Source: Elusimicrobiota bacterium
Lineage (GTDB): Bacteria > Elusimicrobiota > Elusimicrobia > F11
NCBI GenBank assembly: GCA_022072025.1
Contig: JAJVIP010000002.1
Span: 1-39,255, forward strand
Reading direction: 5' to 3'
Length of the DNA stretch: 39,255 nucleotides
Shown: piece after piece, positions 7,401 to 33,381 of the stretch
Numbering within the stretch: the first letter of the stretch is position 1
Layout of the letters: every line of letters starts with the position of its first letter
Notes under the pieces: model-generated
What the model was told of the DNA's origin: nothing
The model's input: the letters and a program-made list of their open reading frames with translations, nothing else
Databases searched by the model: none
Made by a program: the position numbers and the translations under genes

Positions 7401-10400
7401 CATTGGGGCAATTTTTTCTCCCCAATCATGAGGAGGGCCAAGAAAAAGAAGGTGTGGCGAAGAAATGAATGGGGCGCTGCGGAGGTCTCTGAGTCCTCCT
7501 TGTAACCGGAACCGGATTCGCCTTTCTCTGGGAATGGAAATTCACTCGTTTGATTATTCGTCGAGGTTCCAAGGCGTAATATTGCCTCGTTCCGAACATC
7601 GCCCCTCCCCTCGGTTCCGTTTCTCGAAGGGCCCCTGGGACCTCCAAGGAAATACAGACCCATGACCAGAAGGTCGAAAATTATATGGCCATAAAGGCCC
7701 CAGGTGGGAACGTTCAGGGAGGAGGTGAGAGCGTAGAAGGCGAGTAAGAGAATATAACCAGCGAGTGTTTTGCCCCAAGGCGGGCCGCGGTTTTCGAGGG
7801 GTTTGGAGAGATGATGAAGTCCGATCAAACTGAAATGAAGGATCAAGCCGATGAAGGCGGCCGCAAAAAAATTATCCCCGATGCCATGGATCAATGAATC
7901 CATAATGAATCTGGATTCATAAACCCAAACAACATACAACCCCACGCCCGCCGCCACCCACTGAGACAATCCCGCCACCCATCGTTTCGCTCGTTCTGAA
8001 AGAGAAGGTTCAAACAGAACCAGGAAACCATCGACAATCCACATCATTCCCAAATAACCAAGGGCTCCAGGGGCGGGGTGAGAGTGCGGGGACTTATGTT
8101 TCCCTTTCACACTCATGTTTTTATACGCATGGAACCCCCACAACGTGACTCTCTGGCGGACCTGCCCGTCGGGGAGTGTGTCATTTTTATCGATTGTAAG
8201 ATGTTCACCTTCTGATAAAAATTGATTGGAACCCTTTGAGAGGTAGGGAGCATGGACTTGGCTCGCTGGGAAAACCCCCCCTCTGGTTTTCTCTAGCAAT
8301 TTAAATGTGTAGCCCCGTTCCTTAAGTAATTTTTTTGCTATTTCCAAAAAATTCTGCCGGGCCACCCTGATCAATTGAGAAGTCCCTGCTCGGCGATCGT
8401 CGTCAGATAAACTATTGGAATTTAAATTGAGTGACTCCATGATTTGTTGAAGATCGGGTCCAAACCACTGGAAAAATGGGAACACAGATGAGAAATGGAC
8501 AATATGAATTTTCCCTTCCTTGGTTGGTTTCCATAATCTTTCCAGACCGTCAAAAATTTTCTTTAGAACTTCCTCATTTAATGCATAGGAAAGCGCGTTG
8601 AGACCGGTCACAGCGGAATAAGTGTGAGAGGGGAGTGTCTCGAAATTTTCCCAATCGCCCTGAATGACCTTGATTTGTGGAAACCTTATTTTAAGCTCCT
8701 TTACAAAACCTGGCATGTATTCAAAGGCCGTTATTCGAGCGGAGGAGGCCAGGTCAAGGGCTTCCAGATGATGCCCAAGACCAGTGCCAAGGTCCAAAAC
8801 CTGATCGGTTGGTGAAAGGCTTTTATTAATCCGTTTCCAAAATTCATCTTTAAAGAATTGAAGATAAATGTCTTTTTGCAAGGAGAATACTTGAACCAAT
8901 TTCTCCATAAGGTAAGGAGAGTAACCCTTAAGGAGCTGGCTCAAAATTTTCCCATCACTCGGGGGGCCGATCTGAAAATCTTGCACCCATGCGCCTTCCT
9001 CGTTGGTGTAGGGCGGCCCAACTTTATGGCCCAATCCTTTTTCCGTCAAAATTTGTTTCGAATCCCCAATAGTGGGTTCAGTATTTTTTTTCCATAACAC
9101 AATCTGATTTCGATTTTTCCAAATGAACTCAAATAATTTTTTAATTATTGGTTGGGTTTGATAGGGCAATGCCTTCTTATCGCATTTCGTTTTCAATTGA
9201 TTGGCTAACTTTTCGAGTTCTTCCCGGTTTTTTTTAGCAGCCTCCACCATTTGGTTCAATAGAGGTTTGTTCAATAGTCCCGTGACAGAAGGAGGAAATT
9301 CCGGAGCAAATTTCTCAAAGATTTCTTCAACAGGTATGGGGGAATTTTTCTTGAGACCGGATTTCGTTGCAGCTTTTTTTGTTGGATTAGGACCCGCCGA
9401 GGGGATATTGGACTTGCGTTTGTGCGCCGCTGACATCTGCAACCACCGCCACCCCCATTTCTGGGTTAAGAACCGATAAATCCGCGTATCCCGATATTCC
9501 CGGGTGTGCCGTTTCAGGGTTGGCAAAAACAGATTGTTGCCGGCGTGGAGCAGGAAGGAGAGGGTGAAGGCAACAAGGGGGAGGATCCAGGGACTCATGT
9601 CGGATGAACCGGTGAGTAAATAAATTGAATAGGGGAGCGAAAAGAAAAGGGAGGCGAGGAGGCGGTTCCACAGGCGGGCCTGCCAAAAGTGGCGGCGAAG
9701 CTTTGTGATCCTCTCGGGACTTCCGCGTGAACTCCTCACATCGGTGAAGTAATGGGGGAGCGCGTGAACAAAGGCATAGGCCAGCGCGCCCGTGATCCCT
9801 CCAACCTGAATGGCCCCCCACCGGAACCCTTCTTCTATAAAAGGCATCACCCCGCCATAGATCAGCTTCCCACCCCGTTTTCCTATCCAGGATTGAGGAT
9901 TCGTGGCCTCTAGAGTCTCTTGAGAACCGGAGTTCTTATTATTGAATGCAGTCTGGAGGAGACGGAGACTCCGGACCACTTCCTGACTCTGCGCATCAGA
10001 GGAATAAATTTTATCGAGAAATTCTTGATGTTGTTTTGGGTTACTTAAGAGAATAATTTCCAATGGAGTCTTTGATACGTCATCGGAGTTCACCTCAGGC
10101 AAAGTTATAAAAGTGCGAATAAAAAAACTCGATGCCTTTGCAGCCCAAGATTTATTGATCCCTTGTTTTATTGTTTCTATTTCATTGTTTTCTGTCGGCA
10201 GTTCCAATATGTTGGGCGATAGCCCTCCCCCCAATTCCCAAAATTCTCTTAATATTTTCTTAAAACATGATTCCAATATTTTTCTGTTGTTCTCCTGGTT
10301 TATAAAGGCAACAAATGTACGATGAAGAGTGTCGATTTCCAATCGGGTTTTATCTATTAACGTTGTAGGGTTGGGGGCAGCAATCGAATCGGGCTCGACC

Positions 10401-18380: not shown

Positions 18381-18386
18381 TACAAT
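18381..18386 (+). promoter_or_regulatory. Candidate -10 box for giant gene 2
   Basis: TACAAT overlaps the first ATG (18385) and lies seven bases before the second in-frame ATG at 18394. If used, transcription would begin at about 18393 and translation at 18394 on a leaderless mRNA, giving a better signal peptide (MNSQVFRRFF...). No good -35 is visible and there is no Shine-Dalgarno before either ATG. Confidence 0.4.
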
Positions 18387-21300
18387 GGACCCGATGAACT
18401 CCCAGGTATTCCGCAGGTTTTTTTCCGCCTTTTTAACGACCCTCTATTTCACCACTCAGGTGGTGTTGGGCTCGGCGACAGAGTCAAATTTCTGGGCTGA
18501 ACGGAAAAAGACCTCCTTACCAAAAAACTCATTGTTGGCGGCGCTGCCCGCCTCACGCGCCACTCCCGTCCTTCACCAACTTCCCTCCCTCGCTCCGACC
18601 ACGATTTCGACATTAGAGGGGGCAGCAGAGGGGTCAGGTCTTGATGCGACAAGACCTGACCCCTCTGCCCCCTGGATCGATTCGATCCCCTTGACCCACG
18701 GCTCACTCCAAGAAGTTTACGAGTCCAGCGACGAAGAAAACCAACCTCCGGTTGTGATCGTTCAAGATATCCACATGAACCCCGAAGCGCAGACCAACAT
18801 TGCCGGTATTCTGCAAGAACTGATCAATCACAAGAAAGTTGGAGCGGTGGGCGTCGAAGGGGCTTTCGACGTGTTCGATTTCCAACCCTTTCGCCGCTTT
18901 GAGGACAAGCAAACCGTTAAGACGGTAACTGAGGCGTTCTTAAAGAAAAACCTTCTGGCCGCCGCGTCCTACGTGGGGGTCACCAGTCCGACAGAACCAC
19001 CCCTTTTCATCGGGATGGATGACCACGCGTATTACGACGCCAATGTGCGGGCCTATCTGGATAGTCGATCAATCAAAGAGAAAGCCGTTTCGGAAGTCCG
19101 CGCCCGCCAACAAGCGCAGCAAGATAAAAAGAAAAAGGTTTTTTCAACCGAACTTCTCCGGTTCGATCAGCTCAGGTCCGCGCATGCAAAGGGGACCGTG
19201 GGATTGGGTGAATACGTGAAGAACTTATGTCCCTCCCCATCGTTTCACAATGGGGGGGAGGTCGCCAAAGTCACGCGCAACTCAAACACAAGCGCAGGCG
19301 GCGACTCGCCGGGGCGAGGGTTTCCTTTTGTCCTTGATCAATTCCTCTCCGCTTACGAAATCGAATCGACCCTCAATTTCAAACAGGCCGAACGCGAACG
19401 GCAGAGCGTTATCGAACAACTGACAAAAACTTTAAATGAGCAAGAAATGTCCGAACTCATGTCTCAAAGTCTTTCCTATCGCATGGGACGTCTTGGGTTC
19501 GGAGCTTATTATCAGGGACTTAAAAAACTCTGCCTCAAGAAAGGACTTTCGCTTTCCCCTACGCCGGCGTTTGATGAATACATTCGATATGTGCTTCTTG
19601 CCGACGGCATCCAGGCGAAAGAGCTCTATGAGGCCCTCGAGAAATTGGAGAGCCGCGTTCTTCGGTCGCTTGTAAAAACCCGTGAGGAGCAAGAATTGGT
19701 TGACGAGAGCGAGCGCACCGTTCTTCAGAGCAAGTTGTTGGAGTTTTCATTGACCCCCAAAGAATGGGAGAAATATAACCGTATCGGACGCGGCGTGAAC
19801 AGCGTGCCTCTCCAACCCTTCGAAGATTTCTATCGGTATGCGGATTTGCGCAGTGACAAGATGGTTCAGAATCTGCTGGCGCGGATTCAAATCGCTCCGT
19901 CCGAAACCCTCGCCGTTAAATCCGAAATCCTAAACTCTAATGAAGTTTCAAATCCCAAATTATTAAACCAACAAAGAAAAGGCTTGGGATTTGGGGCTAC
20001 GGACTTGGGGTTTCCAAAACCGCAGGTTTTGATCACGGGAGGGTTCCACACTCCCAGAATCACGGCGCTTTTACGTCAGAAGAAGATTTCCTACGCCGTC
20101 ATCTCCCCCAAGATCACCCACCTTCGTCAAGACTCCGGTGGGCAAGCCGAGTACCTTTCCGTTTTTGCGCGTGAAAAAACCCCGCTCGACAAGTTGTTCC
20201 AGGGGGAAAAACTTTTCTTAAGTCCCTCCAAAATCCAAACCACCGATCCCAGCACCGCAGTCACACTTCAAGGCAGTCTCTGCGCGAATGTACTCGGTGT
20301 ACTCACCTTCCCTTGGAAGATCGGCAAAAGGTTTTTCACCTTTCACGTCCGCATTCTGAACAAAGCCGACCCGACACAAGTCGAGGTCGAACTTTCCAAA
20401 TGGGATTGGTTCTATCTCACCCTCCTGGTGAACTGGGAAAACGCCCTCTTTTTTCTGGTTCCCGCAACCCGATATTTGCTGAACACTCTATTACCCGAAT
20501 CATCGCCTGTGACCTGGTGGATTGTCAGCGGCGTTTATTTGCTGAGCGCCGCCCTTTTCGCCGCCGCCCATCCGAACCCAGAGAAAAAAACTTGGTTGAG
20601 ATGGGCCAAGTGGATCGTCTTGTTCGGAATGGGACTTTGCATCGGAGCCCCCTTCGCTTCAACCTCACTGGGCTTCTTGAACGCGGTTCTTATCTCCATT
20701 TCCATCCACACTCCGTTCAACCCATTGCTTCTTCGAGCCCGGTCTTTGTTTGCTGACGTGCCGTACCTGGGAGACTTCCTTCGTTGGGTGCCGCTGGCAT
20801 CTACGTTATCACCGACCAGGCGCCGCCGTCCCCGACGACCATCTATTTCTTTACCTGCACTCCCGAACCAATATCCGTTGAATGCTCACACCCTCTCAGT
20901 TGGCCTTATGAACACATATCTTCTCAAGCTTTATCTAAAAAAGTTTCACGCAGTGGGAGCAGAGTATTCCCAATCCGCTCGATATGCGTTCCTGGCCTTC
21001 GCCGAGCTTTTGGTTCGAGAAGATCCGACAGGACAAACCTTCCGCGACGTGTGGCTTCCCAACTTTGAAGGCGAGAGTGATCTGCAAACACTTTTCTTGG
21101 TGGGCAAAATTCTTTCGGAACACGCGCCGGAGGTATTCAAAGCAGAATGGATTCCAGCTTTCAACAAATACCCGGATCAATGGCAGGGGGACCTGCATAA
21201 TTTTCTTCTTCGGTACACCGAAGATAGAGACGATTACAAACAGGTCAGAAGGTTGGTTGATGAGGATCCATCGGGCAATTCGGCTCTCGCACACTTTCAG

Positions 21301-24300
21301 AACACGCGCGATAATGATTCACACTCGATGAAAATTCTGAGCGGATACACGAACGTTTTGAATCAATCAAGAGAGGCCTTGAAATCTTTTATCTCGTCCG
21401 ATGAACCGTTCGTTCCCTTGGGAAAAGCACTGTACGACCCCGTTGCTCTTTGGCCGATCCTCAAAAATTTTTCTGATCAGATGGGGAGTGCCCAGTTTGC
21501 TCAATCAGCCGTTGCACTTGGATGTCTTGTGCTCAGCGAGGGAGAACCTTCAAGACTTGAGAATTCCACAAGAGCTTGGGAAACGCTGATTGATATTCTG
21601 GCCACTCTAAAAAAATTCAACATTCGCCATGAAGGACAAAGGTACCTGCTGGTTTCGGCGGTGACTGCGCTTGGAAGACAATCTGATCCGATTGATGCAG
21701 AGGTGATGTCGATTGCTGTTCGTAATTATTTCAATTTGAAATCAGGAGAACGCGTCGCCAGAGGCAACAAATCGCCAAAAACCCAGATTGCGCACGTTCT
21801 CCTGGACGCAGCTCTCAATCAAAACGAGTTGCCCTCAGATTTTGCAGCCATGTGGAAAGAATTTGTTGACACGAAAAACCACAACACGGTTCTGCCGTTT
21901 GTCGAAACGCTCATCCATGACGCAAATTGGCGATTGGTCAAGGAACTTAACCCGGGTTTCCATGCCCCCGCTGAAACGCGGACCTTGGTGCGTTTGATTG
22001 AAACGTTCGTGTCGTGGTCGAATGGTGTCGAACCAAAGAAATCCGGTGCTTACTGGGTCCAAGCTCATCGCGTGATGGCTTGTATCCTACGGGACCAAAA
22101 CTCCTGGAATGAATTAGGACTGAATCAAGAAGTGAAAGATCACTATTATCCACGCCAATTCTTGAGAGAGGCCCAGATAAAGATCTACCAATTGGCAGCT
22201 CGGACCTATGGGCGATATGCCGGTTTTCAAGCGCCTTTGGACGAATTTATGATTGGTGATTTATTGGAGGACGAAACTCACAAGCTTCCCATTGAAGAAC
22301 GGGTCGAAGCATTTCGAAACAAAGCAAAGAAAATTGTGGACGAAATTAGAAGTCGCTTATCCGCAGAAGAACGGGGCCAACTTCAGCCATTGGTTGACCT
22401 GATGGTCCAGTTTCACGAGATGTTCGACAATCAAGGCAGATTAGACAAAGTGAAGATTCTCAAAATTCAGGCTGACCGTCTCGAAAACATCATAGGTACG
22501 GCCGTTGGCAAAATTCTGCGTCTGGAAAAGAGCGTCTCATTAGAAAGTGTTCAAGAGTTGGATGAACAGGAGTTTCGGGTCATTCGTTACCTCATGAAAT
22601 ATCCCCAGTTCATGGAACATTCTCATCCGTTAAGTGCGCCTCTGCGTGCCTATTACTTGGTTCGGTTTGGCGGGAAAACCAAAGAAGAGGCAACCAGTAA
22701 ATTTTATGAGGCTTTGAATTTGCCGGCGCAGACCCCCCATGACAAGAAAGTTTTGGAGGGGCCTCAACCCTTAACCGGTCATGTTTTCACTGGGAAACTT
22801 TCTCCAGAACAAAGGGAAAGACTGGGACAGTGGTCTGAGGGTCTTCGCCATCTGTCTTTTATTATCGGTGAATTGAAGCAAGGCGAAAATCCAGATAAGG
22901 AACTTGCGAAACTTTTAGAAGACATCAAAGCCAACCGGCAACCCACTGCAGCAGATTACGCTACATATCGATCCGCTATAAAAGAACGCATATCAGAAAG
23001 GGAAGCCTCGGCGACAGGAACGATTCAAGAAAACCTTCGTATTGCGGAAGGCCACTTTCGTCGCTTTGATGAACTCAATGCGCAGGTGGAGGCGGATGCA
23101 GATACCGAAGAGGTAATGCGCAACGTGCGGAGTGTTGAGGTGGAAATCTCCATAGAGAATGATCCGATTCAGAAACTTCATTTGGGATGGCCGAGTTTGG
23201 GGGGAAGCTGCCTAGATCTGATCGACGGCAGCAACGGGAAATATGCGGCGGCTCACACCATACATCCCTTGGTTCGGGTCGTCTTTATTCGGGAAAAAGG
23301 CGCGGAGCCCGGGAAATCTCCACTCGCGCGCATCAGCGTGGCCTACGATCCTGTGAGCGGCGTGCTGTTCGCGATCAGCCCCATCAAAACCAACTCAGAA
23401 TTTGAATTTTCTCCATTGGTGGGCGAATTCATGGCCCAATGGTCAAAACTAGGCGTGGATGTGGTTCTCCCCAAATCTTTGTCTTACGATGAAAGTCTTG
23501 AAAACGGATTTATCGAGGGGATTGACAACGTTGCCTTAGCAAAAGGCCCCATAGACTTTTATTCAGATCTAACCGGCTTCGAAACTGGAACCTTTCGGAA
23601 GAACTTGGAGGGCATGGTACTGAGAAGACCCTCAGAGCGGAAACCTGGACTTGAGCATGCCGACGAAGCCGCAGCCACCTATACCGGTGAAAACATGACT
23701 GACATCCAGCACGATTCTTTTCGGTTGACCATGGCAGAAGCCGATCAACAGTCCATCAACTGGACCATTGACGAACTGGTGCAGAATGCTCTTAACGCAA
23801 ACATGGCCACAGGCATGTCGTTCGAAGAGGCACTGCGTTCGGTGAAAATCCAACCTCGATTGTCATTTGACAAATCCACCCTGGCCATCGAAATATCCAA
23901 TGAAATACCTTTCGATGAAAAGGAATTTTCCAAAAGGTTACCTTCCGTTCTCATCACCTTGCTCCGCATGCGGGAACGTTCAGGCGACATGATTGGTCTG
24001 TTAACGGATTTATTTGTGGACCCGCGCCGCGGCAGGGAAGCGCTGGCAGAAACCATTTTGCGTGTCGAGCAGGCTATTAACAAAACAAGCGCAGGATGGG
24101 CGCTCACACCGGGCGAGATCTTCCTTCTACTCCGTTCTCCATTTTTCTCGACCAAATCCGAAAATCAAGAACAGTTGTATGGGATATCCGCCGACAATAT
24201 CCCTATGCTGGGAATCTCTGGCGGCGCAGGGCTGGGATTGGCGAAGGGAGCCGAATTACTCAAACAAATGGGCCTGCGGTTGGCCGCGCGGTTTGACGGT

Positions 24301-27300
24301 AAACGAACAACGTTCGTGATCCTCATACTAACAGAGGGCCGTGTTGAGCTTGCCCAAGTTTCCCAAGGTACTCTTAACCGTCATTTGGCTGAAATTGCCC
24401 AAGAGAACTATTGGACCGCAAAAAATGCGGCGACTGGGAATCAATTGAGTGGATACACATTTCCTTTTCCCCAAAATTTGAGGCCGCCCGATCCCGGCGG
24501 CCTCATGGAGTGGGTGCGGGAGGTGTTTTATCCAGATATGAGTCCATCGGACTACGCTGCCGACGCTTACTGGCTGGAAAACTGGGTGTTGTACAAGTGG
24601 TTGGGGCCCACCGTGGGGTTATTTGTTTTTGGGCTCGCCTACCACCTCGGATTGCCTGATATAGGCCTCGGTGCGGTTCAGGCGGGAGACCTTCTTTCTT
24701 CCTTCAAAGCGGCAAACGCCGTGCTGTGGGGCATTTTCGCGCTTGGGCACGTGCCGCACTTGGTTGTTTGGTTCGTCCAGCCGCTGATGAATTTGGTTGG
24801 GCGCCCCAAAAGAACCAGAGGCGACCGTGCCCCGCCTTTGACATTACCAAGCCTTGTCAATCACTTTATTCCCGCCCTCCTCATCTCCACCCTCAATATC
24901 ACGCTTCTCACTCTTCCCTGGCTCACCTGGTTCCCCGTTCTCGCCACGCCCCTCACCACCCCGTTGTTCTATGGGGCACTCGTTGTTGTGGGGTTCGTGC
25001 TTGTTCATAAGTACGTTAATTATTTTCTGTCGGTTGGTGCGGAACCAACGTCAACTTTTTCATATGCGCAAGGAATACACCTTCTTAAGAAAATTCAAAG
25101 TGAGCAACCTCTTGAAATGGACGACATTTTTCCAAACGGCAATCCAGATGTCAGAGCCATTTCACTTGTAACCCATCTCATTAAACAGAAAGGGCTTATT
25201 TCAGCGAAAAAAAGAAATGAAATATTCCAGTTAATTTTGCGGAAGGCCGAAGGGTCCATTGAAATTGGGGCGATGAAAAACAGCGACAGCGTGCCTTCGG
25301 TATTGCCAGCACTTTACGATCTCGGAGTGGCTGTCCTTGATTTGGAGATGGAGCAGGCTCGACAGTCACAGATCAGCGCAGATCCAGACATTACGATACC
25401 CGTTTGGGGAATCCGACGCCGAGACCATCTGGAATGGTACGGAATCGCGTATCGGAACAATCGATTGTTTTTTATTTGTGCGGAACAGCATCACAGTTGG
25501 CCTGCCGTGTACTTCCAAAACCTGTTCATATTGATGATGAAGAGAAACCCGCAGAGATATCAATTGCTCTACGAGCCAGGGTTAGGTGAAGTTGACGCGG
25601 TCCGAACCGAAGAACTGTGGGAAAGTCAGATTCCGTATTATTTCGAGGCGGTTCGCCAGAATGTTCCCACCGAAAGGGGGTATGCGACTCTTCATCATGA
25701 AGTTGTTGAAGAAGCCGCCGCTTTGCGTAGCAATGATTCCCATCCTAAGGGCATTGATGACGAAACTCTCGCCGTTGCGTTTCTTTACTCCTACCTTTCG
25801 AATAAATCTTGGTGGAACAATGAAGTTGAGAAACCCGTCACCGCCAACCACTTGGCTTATCTGTGCACCTTGTATGCGTTGGTCGCAGAATTTCGCTTGC
25901 CGCCGGGCCGACTGGACGAAGCGCTTTTGAACGCCTTTAAGCGCTGGGAAGATTTGACGCCAAACGATTTACTTGAACATGTAAACGAAATTTCAAATCT
26001 ATTTTTAACGATCTCAAATAAGAAGCAATGGAAGAATTTTGAGAAGCTGAATTCGGATGCTCCGGATAGAACGACACTTTACATCGCTGGTTTTGCGCAT
26101 GCCGGTATATTTCAGGGAGGATTTCGTTTATTCAATGACGGTTCGCTCAATGGAATAAAGGATCTTTCGAGCTGTGTGCAATTTTCGAAGAAATATCCAG
26201 ATCGTTCGAGATTCAAAATCGCCTATGAGCTTGCTCAAGAATTACCATCTGACATCGACTATCAGAATCCGATGTATTCAACACCCTACGAAAGAGTCAA
26301 GGGAACGCTTGAAAAATGGTTGAAGTTGCACCGAGTATTTCTGGCTTCGCTCGCAAAACACGAAAAAGAAGAATTCAACCTTGCCTCCGACAATCCCGAC
26401 GCTTCATCAGTTGATGCAACGGCACAGCGCGTCAAATCAATTTATCCCGCCTCCATCTGGATCCGTTGGACGGTGGTCGCGTCTGCTGTAGAAACAATCC
26501 TCTATCAATATCTCGGTGTGCGGCTCCTTCCTGGTCTGCTCCTCTGGTTGGCCCCGCAGATGTCGCCCGAATTTGCCGCCATCGTTGGTGTCGGGTGGAC
26601 AACGCTTGCCTTTGTCCTTTTACACGGGAAACAGACCGGAAAACATTTCGCGGTCCGCCTGGGGCTTTCTGTTGTCTTGAGCAGTTTTTTCGGAATCGCG
26701 GATCTTCGGCTGGCTTTCCTTGCCGCCATTGTCACCCACGCCGTTTATAACGCCATGGCCCTCGCGCTTCGCCAATATAAACCCACCCAAGAATTTGCCG
26801 AAACGTGGCTGCCGCTGGCGTCAACGATCACCAAACCGCAAGACGAACCTAATGGGCAACCTTCAGAGACACAAAAGGCCTACATGGATGAGATCGTGAA
26901 AGATGTCTGGGGTCAAGATCCAACTGAGTTCGAGGCGACTTACGGCAAAGATGATGATGGGCATGATTTTATTTTTCTCAAGCATGATGAGATCGATGAG
27001 GTTCACAATGAGAGGTACAGTTTCATATACCTGGTCCGCTTCATTCCGGAAAGCACGGTCGCTTTGAGTCCACGTATTCCCAATTACAAACAGACAAACA
27101 CCCTCATTATGCCGACCAGACCGTCCAATGGATGGTCAGAACAAGTATTGGAGAATGGGCGTAATGCTTTTCGCCGCGCCATTGTTGGAGACCCGAAAAA
27201 CCCTCGCTTTAGAGAGAAAGTTGTATTGGCACGTTACCAAGCAGAAGCGGTGAAAAAAACTTTGGCTGCTCTCGAGGAGCATAAATTGGGAATGAATGTG

Positions 27301-30300
27301 ATGGCCACTGCCACCGGAAAAACCGTCGTCGCTCTAATGACAATGCATCTTTATCGGAAGGAAAGATTGAAAACACATCCCAATGAAGACCCGGGAGCAT
27401 TTTTGTTTGTAGTCAACAGAGGAAAAATCTTGGAACAGGCGGAAGACCTTTTGGTTCGGTTATTTCCTGGTCAGTACAGAACCACACGAATCTATGGGGG
27501 GGTGATCAACGGAACAGGTGATTACGCTCAAGCCGATGTGATATTTGCCACGCCGGCTTCTCTTGTTCCACGTAAAAAAGGGGAAAAGGATGATGAAAAT
27601 CAGGAAGACGAACAAGGCCAGGCGGATCAGGCCTATCAAGAATATGAAGTGAACCAAGAAGAGGGGCCAGCCGGTGCCGATTACCGATTGGCCAAACTGC
27701 TTCGAAGCAGAAAAATCGGCGGAGTTATCTTTGATGAGGTTCATCATGCTCCAGCGTCGACATTTGATCGAGTTTGGGATGAAGTAATAACAGCCAGTCA
27801 GAATAACGGATGGGACACTGTCATTCTCGGTTATACCGCCACTGAAGTCCGACCGGACAAACTTCCAGTTGTGGGGAGATTCCAACCCGCCGGCATTGTC
27901 CACGAATATTCGATTAAGAAGGCTCGGGATGAAGGCTATGTTGTGCCGCCGGTTGTGGTAAGCGGCGACACAGATATTCGGAAAAAATTTAACATGACAG
28001 ATACAGGGCGCCCCATCCTCCCAGGGGAACCCAGTTACGAAGACTACAAGGCATATCTATACTCCCCAGAACGTTATCCACACCTGCTTCAACAATATAG
28101 GCAACATTCCAACAGTCAATCAGACAAAAGAGCGCTGATTATCGCACCCAGTGTGGAGGACGCGCAAAATTTGAGGAATTATTTCTTGAAAAACGGCGTG
28201 AAGGCCATTTGCCTAACAAGCAAAGAAGACAAAACCTATGTGGACCATCACTATCAGGCATGGAAAGACCGAGCCTGGCCGAAGGAAAGCCACTATGGCA
28301 GCGAACCATTCCCGGACGTGGTGGTGTCCGTTTCTATGTTCAGAGAAGGAGTCGATATTCCAGGGATTCGGCTGGTCATACTTTGGCTGGACCCAAATTC
28401 CATCATTTCATTCATGCAGATTTTTGGGCGCGGGCTTCGTTTGGCAAAGTTTAAAAGCCACATGCTATTTGTGGATACCGTTGGGGCCTTTAGGAAAGTT
28501 CACTTGCTGCGTTATTTGGCAGGTATTCTGCAAAGCGAAAGAGGAAAAAACTATCCACCCGTGGATCTCCCCGAGATGGGTGAATTGCCAGAGGGACTGG
28601 GCATACCCCTCTTCCACGAGGAAATCGAACCCTTTTCGCCCGAATTGAACCAAGACGTCACGGAGGTATTCGATTTGATCTTTGATGACACGCCCGGCAT
28701 GTTGTGGGACCGGTACGGAACTCAAGTCCCACCCTCCGAGATGCGGGATCATATGGATCCCTATTTGGCGCGCCACATGATGAACCCCTCTTCGGATCAA
28801 AATCAATCTGAAACCGTTGAGCAGATGAAAAACTATTTGACCTCCATCGCAGGCGACTTGTCGAAGTTGAACCCGGAAACAATAAATGAACTTCGGTCAA
28901 GAGTGCGGTCAAGTTTCTTTCCAATCTCATCTGCGGAAAGGGACACGGGGGGGAGATCCTTCCCGGTGTCCGGCGTGACTGAAAATATTTTTATGCGACT
29001 GAATCAGCTTATCCGTTCTGCGAGTCCATCCATACAGGATGAACAGGTTGAATTAATTTTCCCGGAGTTCTCCGCTCTGGCTCGAAAAAAATCAGAAAAT
29101 CGCTCGAGAAATCTGGCCCAATTTCAAACCTACTTTTTTCGAAATACATTGAAGGGGTTTGTTACTTTTATCTTGGAAAGTAAGTACAGGCAGTCCATTA
29201 AAAAATTAACTTATCAATCCAGGACATTGCTGGCATTAATGCATCTTGACACCGGCATCTCGATCCCTTCCTTGCTTGAGTCCAATGAGGAGATTTCTCC
29301 GAGTAAGCTGCAGATCATCGACGATGCGGCAGAAGAAAAAGGGATTTCATCTGAAATTGCGCACATGGGTCTTGCGGTTTTGCAGAAGGCATGCATTGAG
29401 CTTTATTTGGGGTTGGTATTGCCTGTATTAAAAAAATCACCTTCGCATAAAAAAACAAATGAAATCTCATCTGAATCCTTTGAACTCGATCCATTGGAAT
29501 TCAAGAAGAAAATGTTGCTAATGGCACCAAAGGAATCCAGGGGCGCCTACACACCTGGGAAACTTTTGATTGATCGAATCAGGAATTTTTCGACTGCCAT
29601 TAAAAGAAATAACGAAAAGGGAATTGAGGAATCCGCCACTTCATTGGATCAGTTTATTCTCGATCTGGATGATTTCGAACAGTACAACATCGAAAATCTT
29701 AATAGAGATATTATTCAACAGCTGCTTAATACACGCCTCACTATCAAGAATATGTTGGACTCACGGGAAAAAAATGCCACCGGCATTGAAAGAAAATTGA
29801 TTACGGATATGGATAATTTTCTAAGGGGGCACGCCATTCTATGGGGAGCTGATGGTCCCGCATCCACTTCCGGGGTACTTTCTTTTCAACGAAGGGACCA
29901 ACGAAACTTCACATGGTATTTTAAGGATGATTCAGGATATACCACCGAGGCTCCATTCTCAATATGCCGCGACTCGTCTGGAAGAGTCAATGTTTATTGC
30001 AGCCAATTTCCCTCCGGCTTGGTCGCTCGGTTTAATCAGGGGTCTGCCGATGACAGAAATATCCTATTGAAGGCTCAGAGGGAGAGCTTTGTCCATTTAG
30101 AGAAACTCTTTGGGCCAAGATTGGTGTTTCTTTTTCCAGATTTCGATTCGACATTTGTTAATGCCCTTATGGATCATGTGGAGCAACAAACCACGCTTAA
30201 TTTTATTGGGCCCCTTGCCAATGTGGTTCCGAATTTTGGTCCAGACTATCTACGTTTTAGAGCCGAAACTTTGCGGTTCCGTGTTGAATTTTTAAACTCA

Positions 30301-33300
30301 GGTGAACTGAAACAAATGGAAGACCGGTACTTCACAAGGCATGAGAACCCCAGCAGTTGGATCAATAGTTTTGTCCTTGATCGCGAAGTGGCTTCGAGAA
30401 AAGGGGGCTTTACCACGCCGGGATCAATCGCCCGCCAAAAATTGAATCAATTTAATCCTACCGATGAGGAAGGTGAGCGGATGTTGAATGATTTACAATC
30501 CGAAGGTCTGGATATTTTGTCACGACCTGAAGTTTATGGACCAGAATTCAAAAAACTGAGTGGATTGTTACAACTTCATCTTCCCAACCGTCCGCTAAGT
30601 GTGATTCAGGTGCGATCCGCTCATGGTTTTCTGGGTTTGATGACCAAATACCCACAGGCAACAGACTACAGAGAGTCTGGTCTGTCAGCGATTTTGGGGT
30701 TTCTTGGCGCGCAAGTTGATTACGAGGGACAAGGGAAAAGTGTCCCAGAAGAAATTGTTTCGGATATCGAACAGCTTCTTCAACTTCAAAAAAAATACCT
30801 CAACCCCTCATTTTCTTCCGCATTGCAATCTGAGGCCATTGCGATCAAAAATCTTGCTCAACAAATAACAGGAAAATTGAAAACATCAGGAATATCCAGC
30901 GTATCGACGGCCGAGGGGCCTCCTTATTTCGTAGACGGAAATTTATACGGTTGGGTAATAACCGCGAAAAAAGGAAAAGAAACTCTTCATTTGGATCCCT
31001 TCCACGCAAGGACAGCTCTCGGAAAAGCGGGAAAGGGAGCGCAAATCATCCCAACGGCTGTAAAAAATGTTGATGTGAAGGGCACGACCTATTGCAAGCA
31101 ATGCGGAAAAAATTCGAATGATCACGGGAAATTTCAATATGATTTCTCGAAGAAATATCGGGGTACCCCACATGAGTTGCGACGAGATGCAGATGGTGAA
31201 ATTATTTTGCCTTCATCACTTTCTGAAAATAGAACCGACACTCAAGATGAGACAGGTGAAACCAACCCCTTGAGTCGCCGCAGTGTCGGCCGAGCGTGGG
31301 GGGGGGCTACTCTCACGGCCGCGGCGCTTGGGTTGGCGGCTCATGTCATCCAAATGAATGACACGGCTTCCACAATATTGATTGTGTCCGCACTGACTCT
31401 TTTTGGATTCTTCACGCTTCTCTTGGCCTTGATGCCCTTTATCTGGACAGCCGGAAGGTTCCTCGGAAACGTGGACAACACCGGTCCGCCGGAACAAATT
31501 TTTCTTTACGGCCGCGATGCTGTCTTCTCTGACGCCGCCCACTTCATTGAATACAACCCAAACAAATCTCGATTTGAAGTAAATCCCCGCCTCTATCGCC
31601 TCCTCACTTTTGGAATGACCTCCCCATCGAAGTCGATCCGCACTTTCGGAGTCCCGATCCGCTACGTCACCCACTTTGTGCTGGCTCTCGTTTTTGTTCC
31701 CCTCCACGAAGGTCGCCACGCGCGCGGCGATACCACTGAATGGAGGCCGTTCCTGTTGCAGTTCGGGATGTTCGCGCTCGTGATCGCTTCGTGTTTCGTT
31801 CTGCCCGCGCTTGGTTTTTCAGCTGGATGGGGCATGGGAATTTATTTGGCGGGCGCGGCGGCGTTTGCGGGGCGGGCGACATCGAAACCATACGGTGTCG
31901 TTACCACTACCGATTTGTTCAAAATTCGCGATCAAATCGACCATGCGGCTTGGCAGGGAAACACAAATGAAATAAAGCGTTTGATTTCCAGCCTTGAGAC
32001 GTTAAAGTCCGATGATCCGTCCGCTTCCGGTCTTCTCGTGGAAATCAGGACTGATGGACTGACGAAGTTGATTGAACTTTTGTTTTATGAATCGAGCAAG
32101 AAGATGAATGGTGGTCAATTAGACAGCGCCTTGGAATGTCTCTCGGAAGCTCAACAGATCCTCAAATCCCATTCCGGTATTTTTCAAAACCACCCCCTCC
32201 GCCAGAAGTTATCGCAATTACAAGACAAAATCAGAAATTTGCGCGCGCCTATCAACGCCATCAATGCAGAATCTTTATTGGCCTATCTTCCCGACAGCGT
32301 CACGCAAGTGTCTCTGGAAAATCAAATATCCGATGGAGAACTGACCGCTGTTTTATTAAAGACCGTGGGATGGACCGATAGGAATCGGTATTGGGTGGTG
32401 TCACTCGTAAATAATTCGGACGGCACCTTTTCTTTGGCGGCTCGCGCAAACGTGGATATCGATAAGGATAAAACGTCGAGTAAACCTTTCACGGTCACCT
32501 TCATTAAAGGAAAAGGCTTTCTTCAGCGAACCATCACATTGTTGTTGAGGAAAAACGTTTTATCCGCCTGGCAATCAGACGATATAGGTCAACGGTCAGA
32601 CGAGGCCAATGAAATGTATCGCCGAATGGAGTCAGATGCGACCCTCAAAGTAACACGAAATCAAAGGACGATTGTCGTGACCTTAAGCGGTGTCGAATGG
32701 ATTTCCGATGTGTTAACGGCATTTCTCGAAAAGGATATATCGCGTCTGGCGCCGGTTGCTCCCATCAATGTGGGTGGCGAGATTACGTCTTCCAGTAATC
32801 ACGAAGCCGCGCTGATCGATCAAATTGAACAGCTGGCCAATAATCCCGACCTCTTGCAGGCGATTAGAACCAGAATCTCGGAAAAAACTCACGCTCAAAT
32901 TTCAGACGAGGCGCTGGAAGTGCTCATCGCCGTGGCGCTTGGGAAAAGCGTCCGAACAGGAACCGCTCAAACAATATTGGATTCAACAAACACAGGCGAT
33001 AATTGCCTTATGGTTTTCAAAGGGAAGTCCGCATCAGACTCGGAACGACGAGTTCGGAAAATCCGGATGATGGCGGCATTTGTTCGAATGGCGTCAACAA
33101 AAATCGATCTCATGGCAGATGAGGAGGCACGGCCTGAGGTTCAACAGGCCATTGCAGCTTTACAGAGCTTTGGTTTGACTGTTCAATCCCGGATTCTTTG
33201 GGATCAAAAGAAGTTCTCTGAAATGGCCCAAAACGCCACTCTTGTCATCGTTCCACCCGATATGAAAATAGACCTTGGGCTCAAGAAATTCATTTCATTC

Positions 33301-33381
33301 GACGAGTTCATTCCCCCAATAACGAATGCTGGAATCGACCGTTTGGACAAAGCCCTCCGCGCCATACTGTCCGCCGCGTAA
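18385..33381 (+). CDS. Giant exported multidomain membrane protein 2 (GHKL ATPase-like, SF2 helicase, HExxH)
   Basis: A single frame of 4,998 codons. Order by residue: signal peptide 1-31 (or from Met4), NFWAERKKTSLP 35-46, a palindrome-encoded linker 77-97, shared N-terminal domain 120-615, degenerate CPBP-like membrane module 672-790, a long helical region to about 1560, a domain with GGSCLDL (about 1610), GHKL ATPase-like fold 1775-1990, second degenerate CPBP-like module 2055-2215, an unknown domain 2240-2660, third such module 2688-2800, SF2 helicase 2930-3400, a helical unknown region to 4230 with CKQC at 4237-4240, membrane segments with HEGRH at 4441-4445, a TPR-like stretch 4510-4620, and an unknown C-terminal region. 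ATG 18394 may be the true start. It is paralogous to giant 1 only at the N-terminus. A helicase and an ATPase behind a signal peptide are unusual, and the topology is unresolved. Confidence 0.9.
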   Translation: MDPMNSQVFRRFFSAFLTTLYFTTQVVLGSATESNFWAERKKTSLPKNSLLAALPASRATPVLHQLPSLAPTTISTLEGAAEGSGLDATRPDPSAPWIDSIPLTHGSLQEVYESSDEENQPPVVIVQDIHMNPEAQTNIAGILQELINHKKVGAVGVEGAFDVFDFQPFRRFEDKQTVKTVTEAFLKKNLLAAASYVGVTSPTEPPLFIGMDDHAYYDANVRAYLDSRSIKEKAVSEVRARQQAQQDKKKKVFSTELLRFDQLRSAHAKGTVGLGEYVKNLCPSPSFHNGGEVAKVTRNSNTSAGGDSPGRGFPFVLDQFLSAYEIESTLNFKQAERERQSVIEQLTKTLNEQEMSELMSQSLSYRMGRLGFGAYYQGLKKLCLKKGLSLSPTPAFDEYIRYVLLADGIQAKELYEALEKLESRVLRSLVKTREEQELVDESERTVLQSKLLEFSLTPKEWEKYNRIGRGVNSVPLQPFEDFYRYADLRSDKMVQNLLARIQIAPSETLAVKSEILNSNEVSNPKLLNQQRKGLGFGATDLGFPKPQVLITGGFHTPRITALLRQKKISYAVISPKITHLRQDSGGQAEYLSVFAREKTPLDKLFQGEKLFLSPSKIQTTDPSTAVTLQGSLCANVLGVLTFPWKIGKRFFTFHVRILNKADPTQVEVELSKWDWFYLTLLVNWENALFFLVPATRYLLNTLLPESSPVTWWIVSGVYLLSAALFAAAHPNPEKKTWLRWAKWIVLFGMGLCIGAPFASTSLGFLNAVLISISIHTPFNPLLLRARSLFADVPYLGDFLRWVPLASTLSPTRRRRPRRPSISLPALPNQYPLNAHTLSVGLMNTYLLKLYLKKFHAVGAEYSQSARYAFLAFAELLVREDPTGQTFRDVWLPNFEGESDLQTLFLVGKILSEHAPEVFKAEWIPAFNKYPDQWQGDLHNFLLRYTEDRDDYKQVRRLVDEDPSGNSALAHFQNTRDNDSHSMKILSGYTNVLNQSREALKSFISSDEPFVPLGKALYDPVALWPILKNFSDQMGSAQFAQSAVALGCLVLSEGEPSRLENSTRAWETLIDILATLKKFNIRHEGQRYLLVSAVTALGRQSDPIDAEVMSIAVRNYFNLKSGERVARGNKSPKTQIAHVLLDAALNQNELPSDFAAMWKEFVDTKNHNTVLPFVETLIHDANWRLVKELNPGFHAPAETRTLVRLIETFVSWSNGVEPKKSGAYWVQAHRVMACILRDQNSWNELGLNQEVKDHYYPRQFLREAQIKIYQLAARTYGRYAGFQAPLDEFMIGDLLEDETHKLPIEERVEAFRNKAKKIVDEIRSRLSAEERGQLQPLVDLMVQFHEMFDNQGRLDKVKILKIQADRLENIIGTAVGKILRLEKSVSLESVQELDEQEFRVIRYLMKYPQFMEHSHPLSAPLRAYYLVRFGGKTKEEATSKFYEALNLPAQTPHDKKVLEGPQPLTGHVFTGKLSPEQRERLGQWSEGLRHLSFIIGELKQGENPDKELAKLLEDIKANRQPTAADYATYRSAIKERISEREASATGTIQENLRIAEGHFRRFDELNAQVEADADTEEVMRNVRSVEVEISIENDPIQKLHLGWPSLGGSCLDLIDGSNGKYAAAHTIHPLVRVVFIREKGAEPGKSPLARISVAYDPVSGVLFAISPIKTNSEFEFSPLVGEFMAQWSKLGVDVVLPKSLSYDESLENGFIEGIDNVALAKGPIDFYSDLTGFETGTFRKNLEGMVLRRPSERKPGLEHADEAAATYTGENMTDIQHDSFRLTMAEADQQSINWTIDELVQNALNANMATGMSFEEALRSVKIQPRLSFDKSTLAIEISNEIPFDEKEFSKRLPSVLITLLRMRERSGDMIGLLTDLFVDPRRGREALAETILRVEQAINKTSAGWALTPGEIFLLLRSPFFSTKSENQEQLYGISADNIPMLGISGGAGLGLAKGAELLKQMGLRLAARFDGKRTTFVILILTEGRVELAQVSQGTLNRHLAEIAQENYWTAKNAATGNQLSGYTFPFPQNLRPPDPGGLMEWVREVFYPDMSPSDYAADAYWLENWVLYKWLGPTVGLFVFGLAYHLGLPDIGLGAVQAGDLLSSFKAANAVLWGIFALGHVPHLVVWFVQPLMNLVGRPKRTRGDRAPPLTLPSLVNHFIPALLISTLNITLLTLPWLTWFPVLATPLTTPLFYGALVVVGFVLVHKYVNYFLSVGAEPTSTFSYAQGIHLLKKIQSEQPLEMDDIFPNGNPDVRAISLVTHLIKQKGLISAKKRNEIFQLILRKAEGSIEIGAMKNSDSVPSVLPALYDLGVAVLDLEMEQARQSQISADPDITIPVWGIRRRDHLEWYGIAYRNNRLFFICAEQHHSWPAVYFQNLFILMMKRNPQRYQLLYEPGLGEVDAVRTEELWESQIPYYFEAVRQNVPTERGYATLHHEVVEEAAALRSNDSHPKGIDDETLAVAFLYSYLSNKSWWNNEVEKPVTANHLAYLCTLYALVAEFRLPPGRLDEALLNAFKRWEDLTPNDLLEHVNEISNLFLTISNKKQWKNFEKLNSDAPDRTTLYIAGFAHAGIFQGGFRLFNDGSLNGIKDLSSCVQFSKKYPDRSRFKIAYELAQELPSDIDYQNPMYSTPYERVKGTLEKWLKLHRVFLASLAKHEKEEFNLASDNPDASSVDATAQRVKSIYPASIWIRWTVVASAVETILYQYLGVRLLPGLLLWLAPQMSPEFAAIVGVGWTTLAFVLLHGKQTGKHFAVRLGLSVVLSSFFGIADLRLAFLAAIVTHAVYNAMALALRQYKPTQEFAETWLPLASTITKPQDEPNGQPSETQKAYMDEIVKDVWGQDPTEFEATYGKDDDGHDFIFLKHDEIDEVHNERYSFIYLVRFIPESTVALSPRIPNYKQTNTLIMPTRPSNGWSEQVLENGRNAFRRAIVGDPKNPRFREKVVLARYQAEAVKKTLAALEEHKLGMNVMATATGKTVVALMTMHLYRKERLKTHPNEDPGAFLFVVNRGKILEQAEDLLVRLFPGQYRTTRIYGGVINGTGDYAQADVIFATPASLVPRKKGEKDDENQEDEQGQADQAYQEYEVNQEEGPAGADYRLAKLLRSRKIGGVIFDEVHHAPASTFDRVWDEVITASQNNGWDTVILGYTATEVRPDKLPVVGRFQPAGIVHEYSIKKARDEGYVVPPVVVSGDTDIRKKFNMTDTGRPILPGEPSYEDYKAYLYSPERYPHLLQQYRQHSNSQSDKRALIIAPSVEDAQNLRNYFLKNGVKAICLTSKEDKTYVDHHYQAWKDRAWPKESHYGSEPFPDVVVSVSMFREGVDIPGIRLVILWLDPNSIISFMQIFGRGLRLAKFKSHMLFVDTVGAFRKVHLLRYLAGILQSERGKNYPPVDLPEMGELPEGLGIPLFHEEIEPFSPELNQDVTEVFDLIFDDTPGMLWDRYGTQVPPSEMRDHMDPYLARHMMNPSSDQNQSETVEQMKNYLTSIAGDLSKLNPETINELRSRVRSSFFPISSAERDTGGRSFPVSGVTENIFMRLNQLIRSASPSIQDEQVELIFPEFSALARKKSENRSRNLAQFQTYFFRNTLKGFVTFILESKYRQSIKKLTYQSRTLLALMHLDTGISIPSLLESNEEISPSKLQIIDDAAEEKGISSEIAHMGLAVLQKACIELYLGLVLPVLKKSPSHKKTNEISSESFELDPLEFKKKMLLMAPKESRGAYTPGKLLIDRIRNFSTAIKRNNEKGIEESATSLDQFILDLDDFEQYNIENLNRDIIQQLLNTRLTIKNMLDSREKNATGIERKLITDMDNFLRGHAILWGADGPASTSGVLSFQRRDQRNFTWYFKDDSGYTTEAPFSICRDSSGRVNVYCSQFPSGLVARFNQGSADDRNILLKAQRESFVHLEKLFGPRLVFLFPDFDSTFVNALMDHVEQQTTLNFIGPLANVVPNFGPDYLRFRAETLRFRVEFLNSGELKQMEDRYFTRHENPSSWINSFVLDREVASRKGGFTTPGSIARQKLNQFNPTDEEGERMLNDLQSEGLDILSRPEVYGPEFKKLSGLLQLHLPNRPLSVIQVRSAHGFLGLMTKYPQATDYRESGLSAILGFLGAQVDYEGQGKSVPEEIVSDIEQLLQLQKKYLNPSFSSALQSEAIAIKNLAQQITGKLKTSGISSVSTAEGPPYFVDGNLYGWVITAKKGKETLHLDPFHARTALGKAGKGAQIIPTAVKNVDVKGTTYCKQCGKNSNDHGKFQYDFSKKYRGTPHELRRDADGEIILPSSLSENRTDTQDETGETNPLSRRSVGRAWGGATLTAAALGLAAHVIQMNDTASTILIVSALTLFGFFTLLLALMPFIWTAGRFLGNVDNTGPPEQIFLYGRDAVFSDAAHFIEYNPNKSRFEVNPRLYRLLTFGMTSPSKSIRTFGVPIRYVTHFVLALVFVPLHEGRHARGDTTEWRPFLLQFGMFALVIASCFVLPALGFSAGWGMGIYLAGAAAFAGRATSKPYGVVTTTDLFKIRDQIDHAAWQGNTNEIKRLISSLETLKSDDPSASGLLVEIRTDGLTKLIELLFYESSKKMNGGQLDSALECLSEAQQILKSHSGIFQNHPLRQKLSQLQDKIRNLRAPINAINAESLLAYLPDSVTQVSLENQISDGELTAVLLKTVGWTDRNRYWVVSLVNNSDGTFSLAARANVDIDKDKTSSKPFTVTFIKGKGFLQRTITLLLRKNVLSAWQSDDIGQRSDEANEMYRRMESDATLKVTRNQRTIVVTLSGVEWISDVLTAFLEKDISRLAPVAPINVGGEITSSSNHEAALIDQIEQLANNPDLLQAIRTRISEKTHAQISDEALEVLIAVALGKSVRTGTAQTILDSTNTGDNCLMVFKGKSASDSERRVRKIRMMAAFVRMASTKIDLMADEEARPEVQQAIAALQSFGLTVQSRILWDQKKFSEMAQNATLVIVPPDMKIDLGLKKFISFDEFIPPITNAGIDRLDKALRAILSAA
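18618..18672. repeat. Palindrome inside giant gene 2 linker
   Basis: CAGAGGGGTCAGGTCTTG (18626-18643) and its exact complement CAAGACCTGACCCCTCTG (18650-18667) form 18-bp arms with a six-base loop, extended by GGGGG/CCCCC outside a bulge. It is read in frame as residues about 77-97 between the signal peptide and the shared domain. The sequence resembles REP-type palindromes mobilised by Y1/REP transposases (inference). Confidence 0.85.
19231..19262. repeat. Short imperfect palindrome inside giant gene 2
   Basis: CCCTCCCCAT, a ten-base spacer, then a complementary run with an extra G (ATGGGGGGGAGG). It encodes part of a Gly/Ser/Asn-rich insert of roughly 30 residues that giant 1 lacks at the same place. 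Confidence 0.55.
19911..20025. repeat. Decayed palindromic repeat inside giant gene 2
   Basis: AAATCC-type A/C-rich repeats (19918-19958) face T/G-rich complements (19984-20020), including CAAATCCCAA with TTGGGATTTG. It is translated as residues about 510-547 just before the VLITGGFH strand, the same position as the perfect 132-bp palindrome in giant 1. The shared AAACTCTAA and A/C-rich style suggest the same family. Confidence 0.65.
20398..20754 (+). other. Giant 2: degenerate CPBP-like membrane module 1
   Basis: Residues about 672-790. Hydrophobic helices contain WENALFFL (one glutamate, E685, where EExxxR is expected), SAALFAAAH, and SIHTPFN (HxxxN). The spacing fits the CPBP fold, but the second glutamate and the arginine are missing. 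Confidence 0.5.
23707..24354 (+). other. Giant 2: GHKL (HATPase)-like domain
   Basis: Residues about 1775-1990. An N-box-like helix ELVQNALNAN (about 1796-1805) is followed by an EISNEIPF strand, a long insert, and a GGAGLGLAKGAELLKQMG G2 box (about 1943-1960). A final TTFVILI strand completes the fold. This matches the ATP-binding fold of histidine kinases, Hsp90 and MutL. No histidine phosphoacceptor or receiver domain is seen, so the partner is unknown. Confidence 0.6.
24547..25029 (+). other. Giant 2: degenerate CPBP-like membrane module 2
   Basis: Residues about 2055-2215. WLENWVLYKWLGP stands where EExxxR is expected, then GIFALGHVPH (FxxxH-like) and VHKYVN (HxxxN). An RAPP turn mirrors the RGPP turn of the giant 1 modules. 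Confidence 0.45.
26446..26784 (+). other. Giant 2: degenerate CPBP-like membrane module 3
   Basis: Residues about 2688-2800. AVETILYQYLG replaces the usual vEExxFRg, followed by LAFVLLH and THAVYNAM. The HxxxN motif and helix spacing are kept; the paired glutamate and the arginine are not. Confidence 0.55.
27172..28584 (+). other. Giant 2: complete SF2 helicase core
   Basis: Residues about 2930-3400. Pre-motif ARYQAEAVKKTL; motif I MATATGKT (2973-2980, the first P-loop Gly replaced by Ala); motif Ia FVVNRGKILEQAE; motif II DEVHH (3117-3121); motif III GYTAT; motif V SMFREGVDIPG; motif VI QIFGRGLR (3345-3352). This is the type III restriction/UvrB-like SF2 plan. A Q/E/D-rich insert (27580-27680) lies between motifs Ia and II. 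No nuclease or methylase partner for a restriction system is nearby. Activity is plausible apart from the P-loop substitution. Confidence 0.85.
28941..28971. repeat. Short palindrome inside giant gene 2 after the helicase
   Basis: GGACAC(G)GGG pairs with CCCGGTGTCC with one gap. It encodes a DTGGRSFPVSG stretch between the helicase and the following helical region. Possibly another in-frame repeat insertion, but short. Confidence 0.45.
31657..31884 (+). other. Giant 2: membrane segment with HExxH motif
   Basis: Residues about 4425-4500. A hydrophobic helix ends in VPLHEGRHARGD, with H4441-E4442-x-x-H4445 matching zinc metallopeptidases, followed by two more hydrophobic helices. A third ligand is not obvious, so a peptidase role is only a possibility. 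Confidence 0.4.

What the first reader, a model, noticed from the sequence alone, without database searches (positions are those of the whole stretch)
27172..28584. Complete SF2 helicase behind a signal peptide and membrane helices
Motifs I to VI are all recognisable in a protein that appears to be exported or membrane-embedded. Motif I has Ala for the first P-loop Gly. A nucleic-acid motor in this setting could act at the inner face, in DNA uptake or release, or could be a delivered effector.
Basis: partly seen in the sequence, partly recalled or inferred. Interest (0 to 1): 0.7.

Follow-up and report, generated by a model that had tools for sequence, protein, structure and literature searches.

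The report
Helicase inside giant membrane-tethered Elusimicrobiota protein
A DNA/RNA motor of the helicase kind sits in the middle of a 4,998-residue membrane protein, one of a large, apparently undescribed family of giant bacterial proteins that share an exported enzyme-like front end and a near-fixed last residue but carry different enzymes in between.

Summary
One uninterrupted 4,998-aa frame (18385-33381, +) carries an N-terminal signal-peptide-like segment, several membrane modules and, at residues ~2940-3400, a full SF2 helicase core. All 24 columns invariant among eight distant homologues are kept; only the first Gly of AxxGxGKT is Ala. No other genome sampled in the phylum (341) has this helicase, so its fusion cannot be checked in an orthologue. 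However, residues 1-~630 are a 'head' shared by at least 14 proteins of this genome and by 63 of 336 Elusimicrobiota genomes, normally on giant frames. The head has the TIKI-superfamily catalytic pattern: Asp-x-His, Glu 28 residues after the His, and a distal His. The cargo behind it varies (kinases, phosphatases, glutamate dehydrogenase, SecA-like motor, glucanotransferase and others), keeps catalytic residues, and shows dN/dS well below 1 in three orthologous pairs. The last residue is Ala in 50 of 56 complete members, against 22 of 284 other ORFs. I read the helicase as a cytosolic motor module of a membrane-tethered protein with an exported TIKI-like head. Topology is not settled, and delivery as an effector remains the main rival. 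DNA uptake has no support.

The parts
18385..33381 (+). Giant ORF, 4,998 aa (P0001)
   Evidence: coding periodicity continuous over the whole frame
18385..18480 (+). Signal-peptide-like N-terminus (res 1-32), followed by the family motif ESNFWAERKK
   Evidence: same pattern (basic n-region, hydrophobic core, AxA-like end, FWxERR) in paralogues and relatives
18643..20274 (+). TIKI-like head (res 87-630): D128-x-H130, E158, distal H555
   Evidence: D128, H130, E158 and H555 invariant in 14/14 own-genome members; His to Glu spacing of 28 in 75/88 and distal GGxH in 88/90; AF2 model pLDDT 81; ChaN Pfam in 5/14 at best E 0.0037
20254..20736 (+). CPBP-like membrane module 1 (res 624-784)
   Evidence: hydropathy; the segment 654-807 recurs in paralogue m9
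23722..24384 (+). Possible degenerate GHKL-type ATPase (res ~1780-2000; 'DELVQNALNA', 'GGAGLGLAKG')
   Evidence: motifs by eye; no significant database match; tentative
24595..25008 (+). CPBP-like membrane module 2 (res 2071-2208)
   Evidence: hydropathy
26437..26769 (+). CPBP-like membrane module 3 (res 2685-2795)
   Evidence: hydropathy; weak CPBP_JDVT_MrtJ match, E 0.12
27205..28506 (+). SF2 helicase core (res 2941-3374)
   Evidence: ResIII and Helicase_C; profile of window plus eight homologues
27304..27324 (+). Motif I ATATGKT (res 2974-2980), Ala2976 for Gly
27568..27684 (+). Acidic low-complexity insertion before motif II
   Evidence: gap in all eight homologues
27733..27744 (+). Motif II DEVH (res 3117-3120)
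28345..28362 (+). Motif V EGVDIP (res 3321-3326)
28417..28440 (+). Motif VI QIFGRGLR (res 3345-3352)
31294..31824 (+). C-terminal hydrophobic segments (res 4304-4480)
32659..33378 (+). C-terminal domain (res 4759-4998) ending ALRAILSAA
   Evidence: 28% identical to the tail of paralogue m5/L021; terminal Ala in 50/56 members
1487..13285 (-). P0002: second family member in the window (same head; methyltransferase, GH77 glucanotransferase, maltokinase-like cargo, CPBP module with EExxxR, H, HxxNN)

Best explanation
P0001 is one gene and one polypeptide, a member of a family of giant, membrane-tethered, multi-enzyme proteins of Elusimicrobiota. SHOWN: a shared head with the TIKI-superfamily catalytic pattern behind a signal-peptide-like start; hydrophobic modules between soluble domains; variable cargo with catalytic residues in place; a near-invariant C-terminal Ala; an SF2 core of the ResIII / type I R-subunit / RadD kind with every invariant motif residue. 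INFERRED: the head is exported by Sec; each CPBP-like module returns the chain to the cytosolic side; the helicase therefore works in the cytosol, held at the inner membrane, as an ATP-driven double-strand nucleic-acid translocase or remodeller, coupled to whatever the outward-facing TIKI-like hydrolase senses or cleaves. The Ala in motif I probably tunes rather than abolishes ATP use, because Lys, Thr, DExH and the motif VI arginines are intact.
For: Helicase core real and motif-complete. Head shared by 14 proteins of this genome and 63/336 phylum genomes, on giant frames. TIKI pattern: Asp-x-His, Glu at +28, distal His, matching the His-Glu spacing of RRSP (3902/3930), Bcr135 (85/113) and EreC (50/78) reported in PMC6254334 and PMC7979712. 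Cargo enzymes that need ATP, NAD, PLP or SAM keep catalytic residues, which fits a cytosol. A SecA-type motor sits in two orthologous members, with dN/dS 0.13 over the window that covers its motifs. The best positive-inside solution restricted to the three membrane modules puts the helicase inside whether the head is out (27.0 vs 20.4) or in (30.0 vs 23.4).
Against: A freer topology search was indecisive (in minus out 0.38) and put a dockerin control inside; family-wide loop charges give no signal (p 0.61). No orthologue of this helicase exists in the sampled phylum, so constraint on it cannot be measured. Ala in motif I is not seen in eight homologues. Foldseek gave no significant match for the head; HopBA1, a TIKI protein, is only rank 5 with E 0.77.
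Confidence: 0.45

Rival explanations
1. The giant protein is exported whole or in part and its enzyme modules, helicase included, are delivered into other cells (host, prey or kin), working like a multi-effector protein. The TIKI head or the CPBP modules would release the modules and the C-terminal tail would be the sorting signal.
For: Constant head and constant end with unrelated enzymes between; signal-peptide-like start throughout; C-terminal Ala in 50/56; membrane-embedded protease-like modules; a TIKI enzyme is itself one of the effector domains of a MARTX protein (PMC6254334).
Against: No adjacent small immunity gene: the next gene starts 124 bases away on the other strand and is a DUF4143 ATPase. 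A median of 7-8 predicted membrane segments after the head suits membrane residence, not release. Cargo is mostly metabolic or regulatory. No secretion apparatus was tied to the family in the flanks examined (a limited test).
Confidence: 0.3
2. The cargo is captured sequence kept as structural filler in a large surface or envelope protein; the helicase fold is retained but the motor is not used.
For: The helicase is a singleton in the phylum, very divergent (~25% identity), with Ala in motif I and an acidic insertion.
Against: All 24 invariant residues kept; paralogue cargo keeps catalytic residues; orthologous giants evolve under purifying selection along most of their length (dN/dS 0.13-0.49).
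Confidence: 0.13
3. A DNA-uptake or DNA-release motor at the envelope.
For: A nucleic-acid motor on a membrane-tethered protein.
Against: No competence, nuclease or pilus gene among the annotated neighbours: DUF4143 ATPases, a Gld-like ABC-transporter operon, Fic, tRNA-His, an fn3 protein. Paralogous heads carry cargo unrelated to DNA.
Confidence: 0.05
4. Assembly or gene-calling artefact: a separate cytosolic helicase gene joined to a membrane protein.
For: No second genome carries the same fusion.
Against: No internal start with a ribosome site, unbroken frame and codon periodicity; P0002 in the same window and 12 further members in the genome have the same build.
Confidence: 0.02

Closest known systems
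ResIII / type I restriction R subunit (EcoAI family) and RadD-type SF2 helicases
   Same: Helicase core, motif order, DExH, EGxDxP, QxxGRGLR
   Different: ~25% identity; far below every NCBIfam cut-off; no nuclease or HsdR partner domain found; Ala in motif I; embedded in a 4,998-aa membrane protein
TIKI superfamily (ChaN, EreC, HopBA1, RRSP, Bcr135)
   Same: Acid near the first His, Glu exactly 28 after the His, distal His; strand/helix core in the predicted model (PMC6254334; PMC7979712)
   Different: Asp instead of Glu before the His; ~330-residue helical insertion; only sub-threshold Pfam and Foldseek matches; sits at the front of giant proteins
MARTX and polymorphic toxin proteins
   Same: Constant ends with variable enzymatic modules (a likeness in build, a lead only)
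   Different: No immunity gene, many membrane segments, cargo largely housekeeping-type enzymes, both ends constant
Huge proteins of Elusimicrobiota and giant ORFs of Omnitrophota
   Same: Elusimicrobiota were already noted as rich in proteins over 5,000 aa, without assigned function (PMC11573180); Omnitrophota giants are proposed adhesins or coats (PMC10066038)
   Different: In the papers found here no common head, cargo census or C-terminal Ala is described; adhesin-type domains are rare in the members scanned (one dockerin)
CPBP (Rce1/CAAX-type) membrane proteases
   Same: The module in P0002 keeps EExxxR, H and HxxNN; Rce1-like Pfam match in one relative, E 9.7e-5
   Different: P0001 modules are degenerate (for example WENALFF for EExxxR) and match only weakly

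Membership tests
SF2 helicase, ResIII/RadD-like | Motifs I, II, III, V, VI with catalytic residues | tested here: met
   24/24 invariant columns kept; first Gly of AxxGxGKT is Ala
SF2 helicase, ResIII/RadD-like | Family profile score above curated cut-off | tested here: met
   ResIII 68.8 vs 22.5 bits; Helicase_C 28.2 vs 23.5
Type I restriction R subunit / RadD (equivalogs) | NCBIfam equivalog cut-off | tested here: not met
   EcoAI 62 vs 550 bits; RadD 34.6 vs 720
SF2 helicase | ATP-dependent translocation or unwinding | not testable with these tools
   needs purified protein
TIKI superfamily (head) | 2His/2acid pattern with Glu 28 after first His | tested here: met
   D128, H130, E158 and H555 invariant in 14 members; +28 in 75/88, distal His in 88/90; first acid is Asp, not Glu
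TIKI superfamily (head) | Fold: parallel beta core with flanking helices, matched by structure search | tested here: inconclusive
   AF2 pLDDT 81; HopBA1 rank 5, E 0.77, prob 0.47; ChaN Pfam sub-threshold
Polymorphic toxin system | Adjacent small immunity gene | tested here: not met
   Next gene 33505-34653 is a DUF4143 ATPase on the other strand; criterion from PMC3482391
Polymorphic toxin system | Constant N-terminal part with variable C-terminal toxin domain | tested here: inconclusive
   Constant N-terminus with variable middle, but the C-terminal end is also constant and cargo is not toxin-like
CPBP membrane protease (P0001 modules) | EExxxR, FxxxH, HxxxN motifs | tested here: not met
   Degenerate in P0001 by inspection with weak profile match; intact in P0002
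Sec-exported protein | Cleavable signal peptide | tested here: inconclusive
   Pattern fits in most members but no dedicated predictor available; region just after it is rich in K/R

The most novel reading that the evidence does not exclude
A new class of giant modular proteins in which an exported TIKI-type hydrolase and repeated CPBP-like membrane modules process a long chain into separate enzymes, with the terminal Ala tail as a recognition signal, so that one gene supplies a set of enzymes (helicase included) to the membrane face or to another cell.
Probability: 0.2. Interest if true: 0.88.

Novelty: new variant of a known kind. Interest (0 to 1): 0.6.

Why it matters
Elusimicrobiota are among the bacterial phyla richest in huge proteins, with no function assigned (PMC11573180). 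A shared TIKI-like head, shuffled enzymatic cargo under purifying selection and a near-invariant C-terminal Ala turn an anonymous set of giant genes into one family with testable parts: where the head goes, what it cleaves, whether the chain is cut, and what reads the tail. A nucleic-acid motor in such a chain is an extreme case that would discriminate sharply between a cytosolic and an exported role.

Tried and rejected
Close-relative scans of genome and viral collections with the helicase found none. Single-sequence AF2 of the helicase was unusable (pLDDT 35) and was not searched. PDB sequence searches of other P0001 regions gave nothing useful. Charge-based topology: the restricted model favours helicase inside, but the free model is indecisive and misplaces a dockerin, and family statistics are flat, so I do not claim topology. 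Profile comparison of C-terminal domains joined only some groups; homology of all tails is not shown beyond the terminal residues. A Gld-like ABC operon upstream of P0001 recurs near one relative only, so linkage is not supported. A degron reading of the tail was compared with the genome's own tmRNA tag, ANEELALAA: P0001 and second-group tails (LSAA) resemble it, most own-class tails (QA, HA, SA) do not.
Full report
WHAT IS THERE. The window holds two giant genes. P0001 (18385-33381, +) encodes 4,998 aa without a stop, P0002 (1487-13285, -) 3,932 aa. Pfam finds ResIII (6.7e-19) and Helicase_C (2.4e-6), both over cut-off. Nearest solved structures by sequence are a putative helicase (7clg, 3e-16), a type I R subunit, XPBII and RadD; nearest NCBIfam models are EcoAI-type R subunits and RadD, far below their cut-offs. 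Against eight phage and plasmid homologues at 24-29% identity, all 24 invariant columns are kept, including GK, DExH, TAT, EGxDxP and QxxGRxLR. The first Gly of AxxGxGKT is Ala only here, and there is an acidic insertion before motif II. The same position is not always Gly in other SF2 groups (Hel308-type proteins; general knowledge, not tested), so I do not read it as inactivating.

IS IT ONE GENE. Codon-position GC is coding-like in every 500-codon block, and the only Met codons between the last membrane module and the helicase lack a ribosome site. Promoter-like sites do not exceed shuffles. No relative of this helicase at E 1e-12 occurs in 341 genomes of the phylum, nor at 1e-10 in 60 relatives, and among the ResIII matches listed for 60 relatives (list truncated) ours is the only one in a giant frame. 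A profile of the helicase finds no second copy in 127 large ORFs of the family loci. So the fusion cannot be checked in an orthologue, but the build is typical of the family described next.

THE FAMILY. Residues ~5-630 of P0001 match 13 other proteins of this genome, including P0002, at 30-47% identity, while the rest of the chains is almost unrelated. The genome-contig scan found 124 relatives; the best 80, all that were shown, are Elusimicrobia MAGs or 'Ca. Obscuribacterium magneticum', whose contig lengths agree with genome G001, placed by the genome tool in the window's own family. A profile of the head hits 63 of 336 genomes of the phylum, in the window's class and in a second group of families outside that class, usually on frames of thousands of residues (a 13,472-residue frame). 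No match in phages or plasmids. Presence outside the phylum was not excluded, because only the best 80 of 124 hits were listed. Nearly all members start with a signal-peptide-like stretch, followed in the window's class by FWxERR.

THE HEAD. Pfam gives only sub-threshold ChaN matches in 5 of 14 members. The AF2 model from 47 sequences is good (pLDDT 81) and shows a strand/helix core interrupted by ~330 helical residues. Foldseek is not significant; the TIKI protein HopBA1 is rank 5 (E 0.77, prob 0.47). The residue pattern is stronger evidence: D128-x-H130, E158 (28 after the His) and H555 are invariant in the 14 own-genome members; spacing of 28 holds in 75 of 88 heads and the distal GGxH in 88 of 90. 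Published TIKI enzymes have the same spacing: RRSP His3902-Glu3930, Bcr135 His85-Glu113 (PMC6254334), EreC H50-E78 (PMC7979712). Caveat: part of the set was found with a pattern that includes QDxH, but not the Glu or distal His; the own-genome members and the 20 second-group loci were not chosen by that pattern.

THE CARGO. In this genome: kinase-like domains, LMW phosphatase, glutamate dehydrogenase, PPDK N-domain, PLP enzyme, GNAT, PP2C/FHA, methyltransferases, GH77, maltokinase-like, a dockerin, and our helicase. In relatives: PP2C, cNMP-binding, ABC1 kinases, AAA_5, SecA DEAD/P-loop, M48, GHKL, ARMT1 and others; the SecA-like motor is in two orthologous members. Catalytic residues are in place, by inspection, in those printed. 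Three orthologous pairs show dN/dS 0.13-0.49 along their length. Modules shuffle: P0001 654-807 recurs near the end of m9, and P0001 4769-4998 is the tail of m5.

THE TAIL. The last residue is Ala in 36 of 42 complete members against 22 of 284 other ORFs in the same loci (Fisher p 1.7e-26) and in 14 of 14 complete members from the second group (some are close relatives of each other). P0001 ends ALRAILSAA. The meaning is unknown; the genome's tmRNA tag ends ALAA, a partial resemblance.

TOPOLOGY. Hydrophobic modules lie at residues 624-784, 2071-2208, 2685-2795 and 4304-4480. Restricted to the first three, the positive-inside optimum places the helicase inside for either head orientation. A freer search is indecisive and fails a control, and loop charges across the family are flat. 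I therefore lean to a cytosolic helicase because its cofactor and substrate are there, and mark it as inference.

VERDICT. The helicase is one cargo of a giant TIKI-headed membrane family of Elusimicrobiota. Most likely it is a membrane-tethered cytosolic motor; delivery to other cells is the main rival; DNA uptake is unsupported. Huge proteins in this phylum were counted before (PMC11573180) but I found no description of this family in the library searched, which lacks most subscription journals and preprints.

Noticed in passing
P0001 C-terminus, window 33352-33378; L017-L029, L033-L108, L119-L138: Near-invariant C-terminal Ala (50/56) across otherwise unrelated tails, often ILSAA or xQA; what reads this signal is unknown.
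   Followed up: partly
window 1487-13285 (-): P0002, a second family member with an intact-looking CPBP protease module, a methyltransferase, a GH77 glucanotransferase and a maltokinase-like domain in one chain.
   Followed up: partly
window 13876-18006 (+): Gld-like ABC transporter operon (ATPase, ABC-2 permease, ABC_transp_aux, DUF4340) directly upstream of P0001; the same operon lies near one relative (L046:17165-21367).
   Followed up: partly
L067 and L073, residues ~2000-2700 of the giant ORF: SecA-type motor domain as cargo behind the same head in two orthologues; the most constrained part of that chain (dN/dS 0.13).
   Followed up: partly
window 124-1305 (+) and 33505-34653 (-): Two DUF4143/AAA_14 ATPases flank the giant genes, plus a Fic protein with HTH at 34937-35875 (-).
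   Followed up: no
window 36740-39253 (+): Start of a further large open-ended ORF with fibronectin type III-like repeats.
   Followed up: no
window 23155-24384 (P0001 residues ~1590-2000): Region with a possible degenerate GHKL ATPase preceded by a sugar-phosphatase-like stretch (GGSCLDLIDGSNGKY); no database support.
   Followed up: partly
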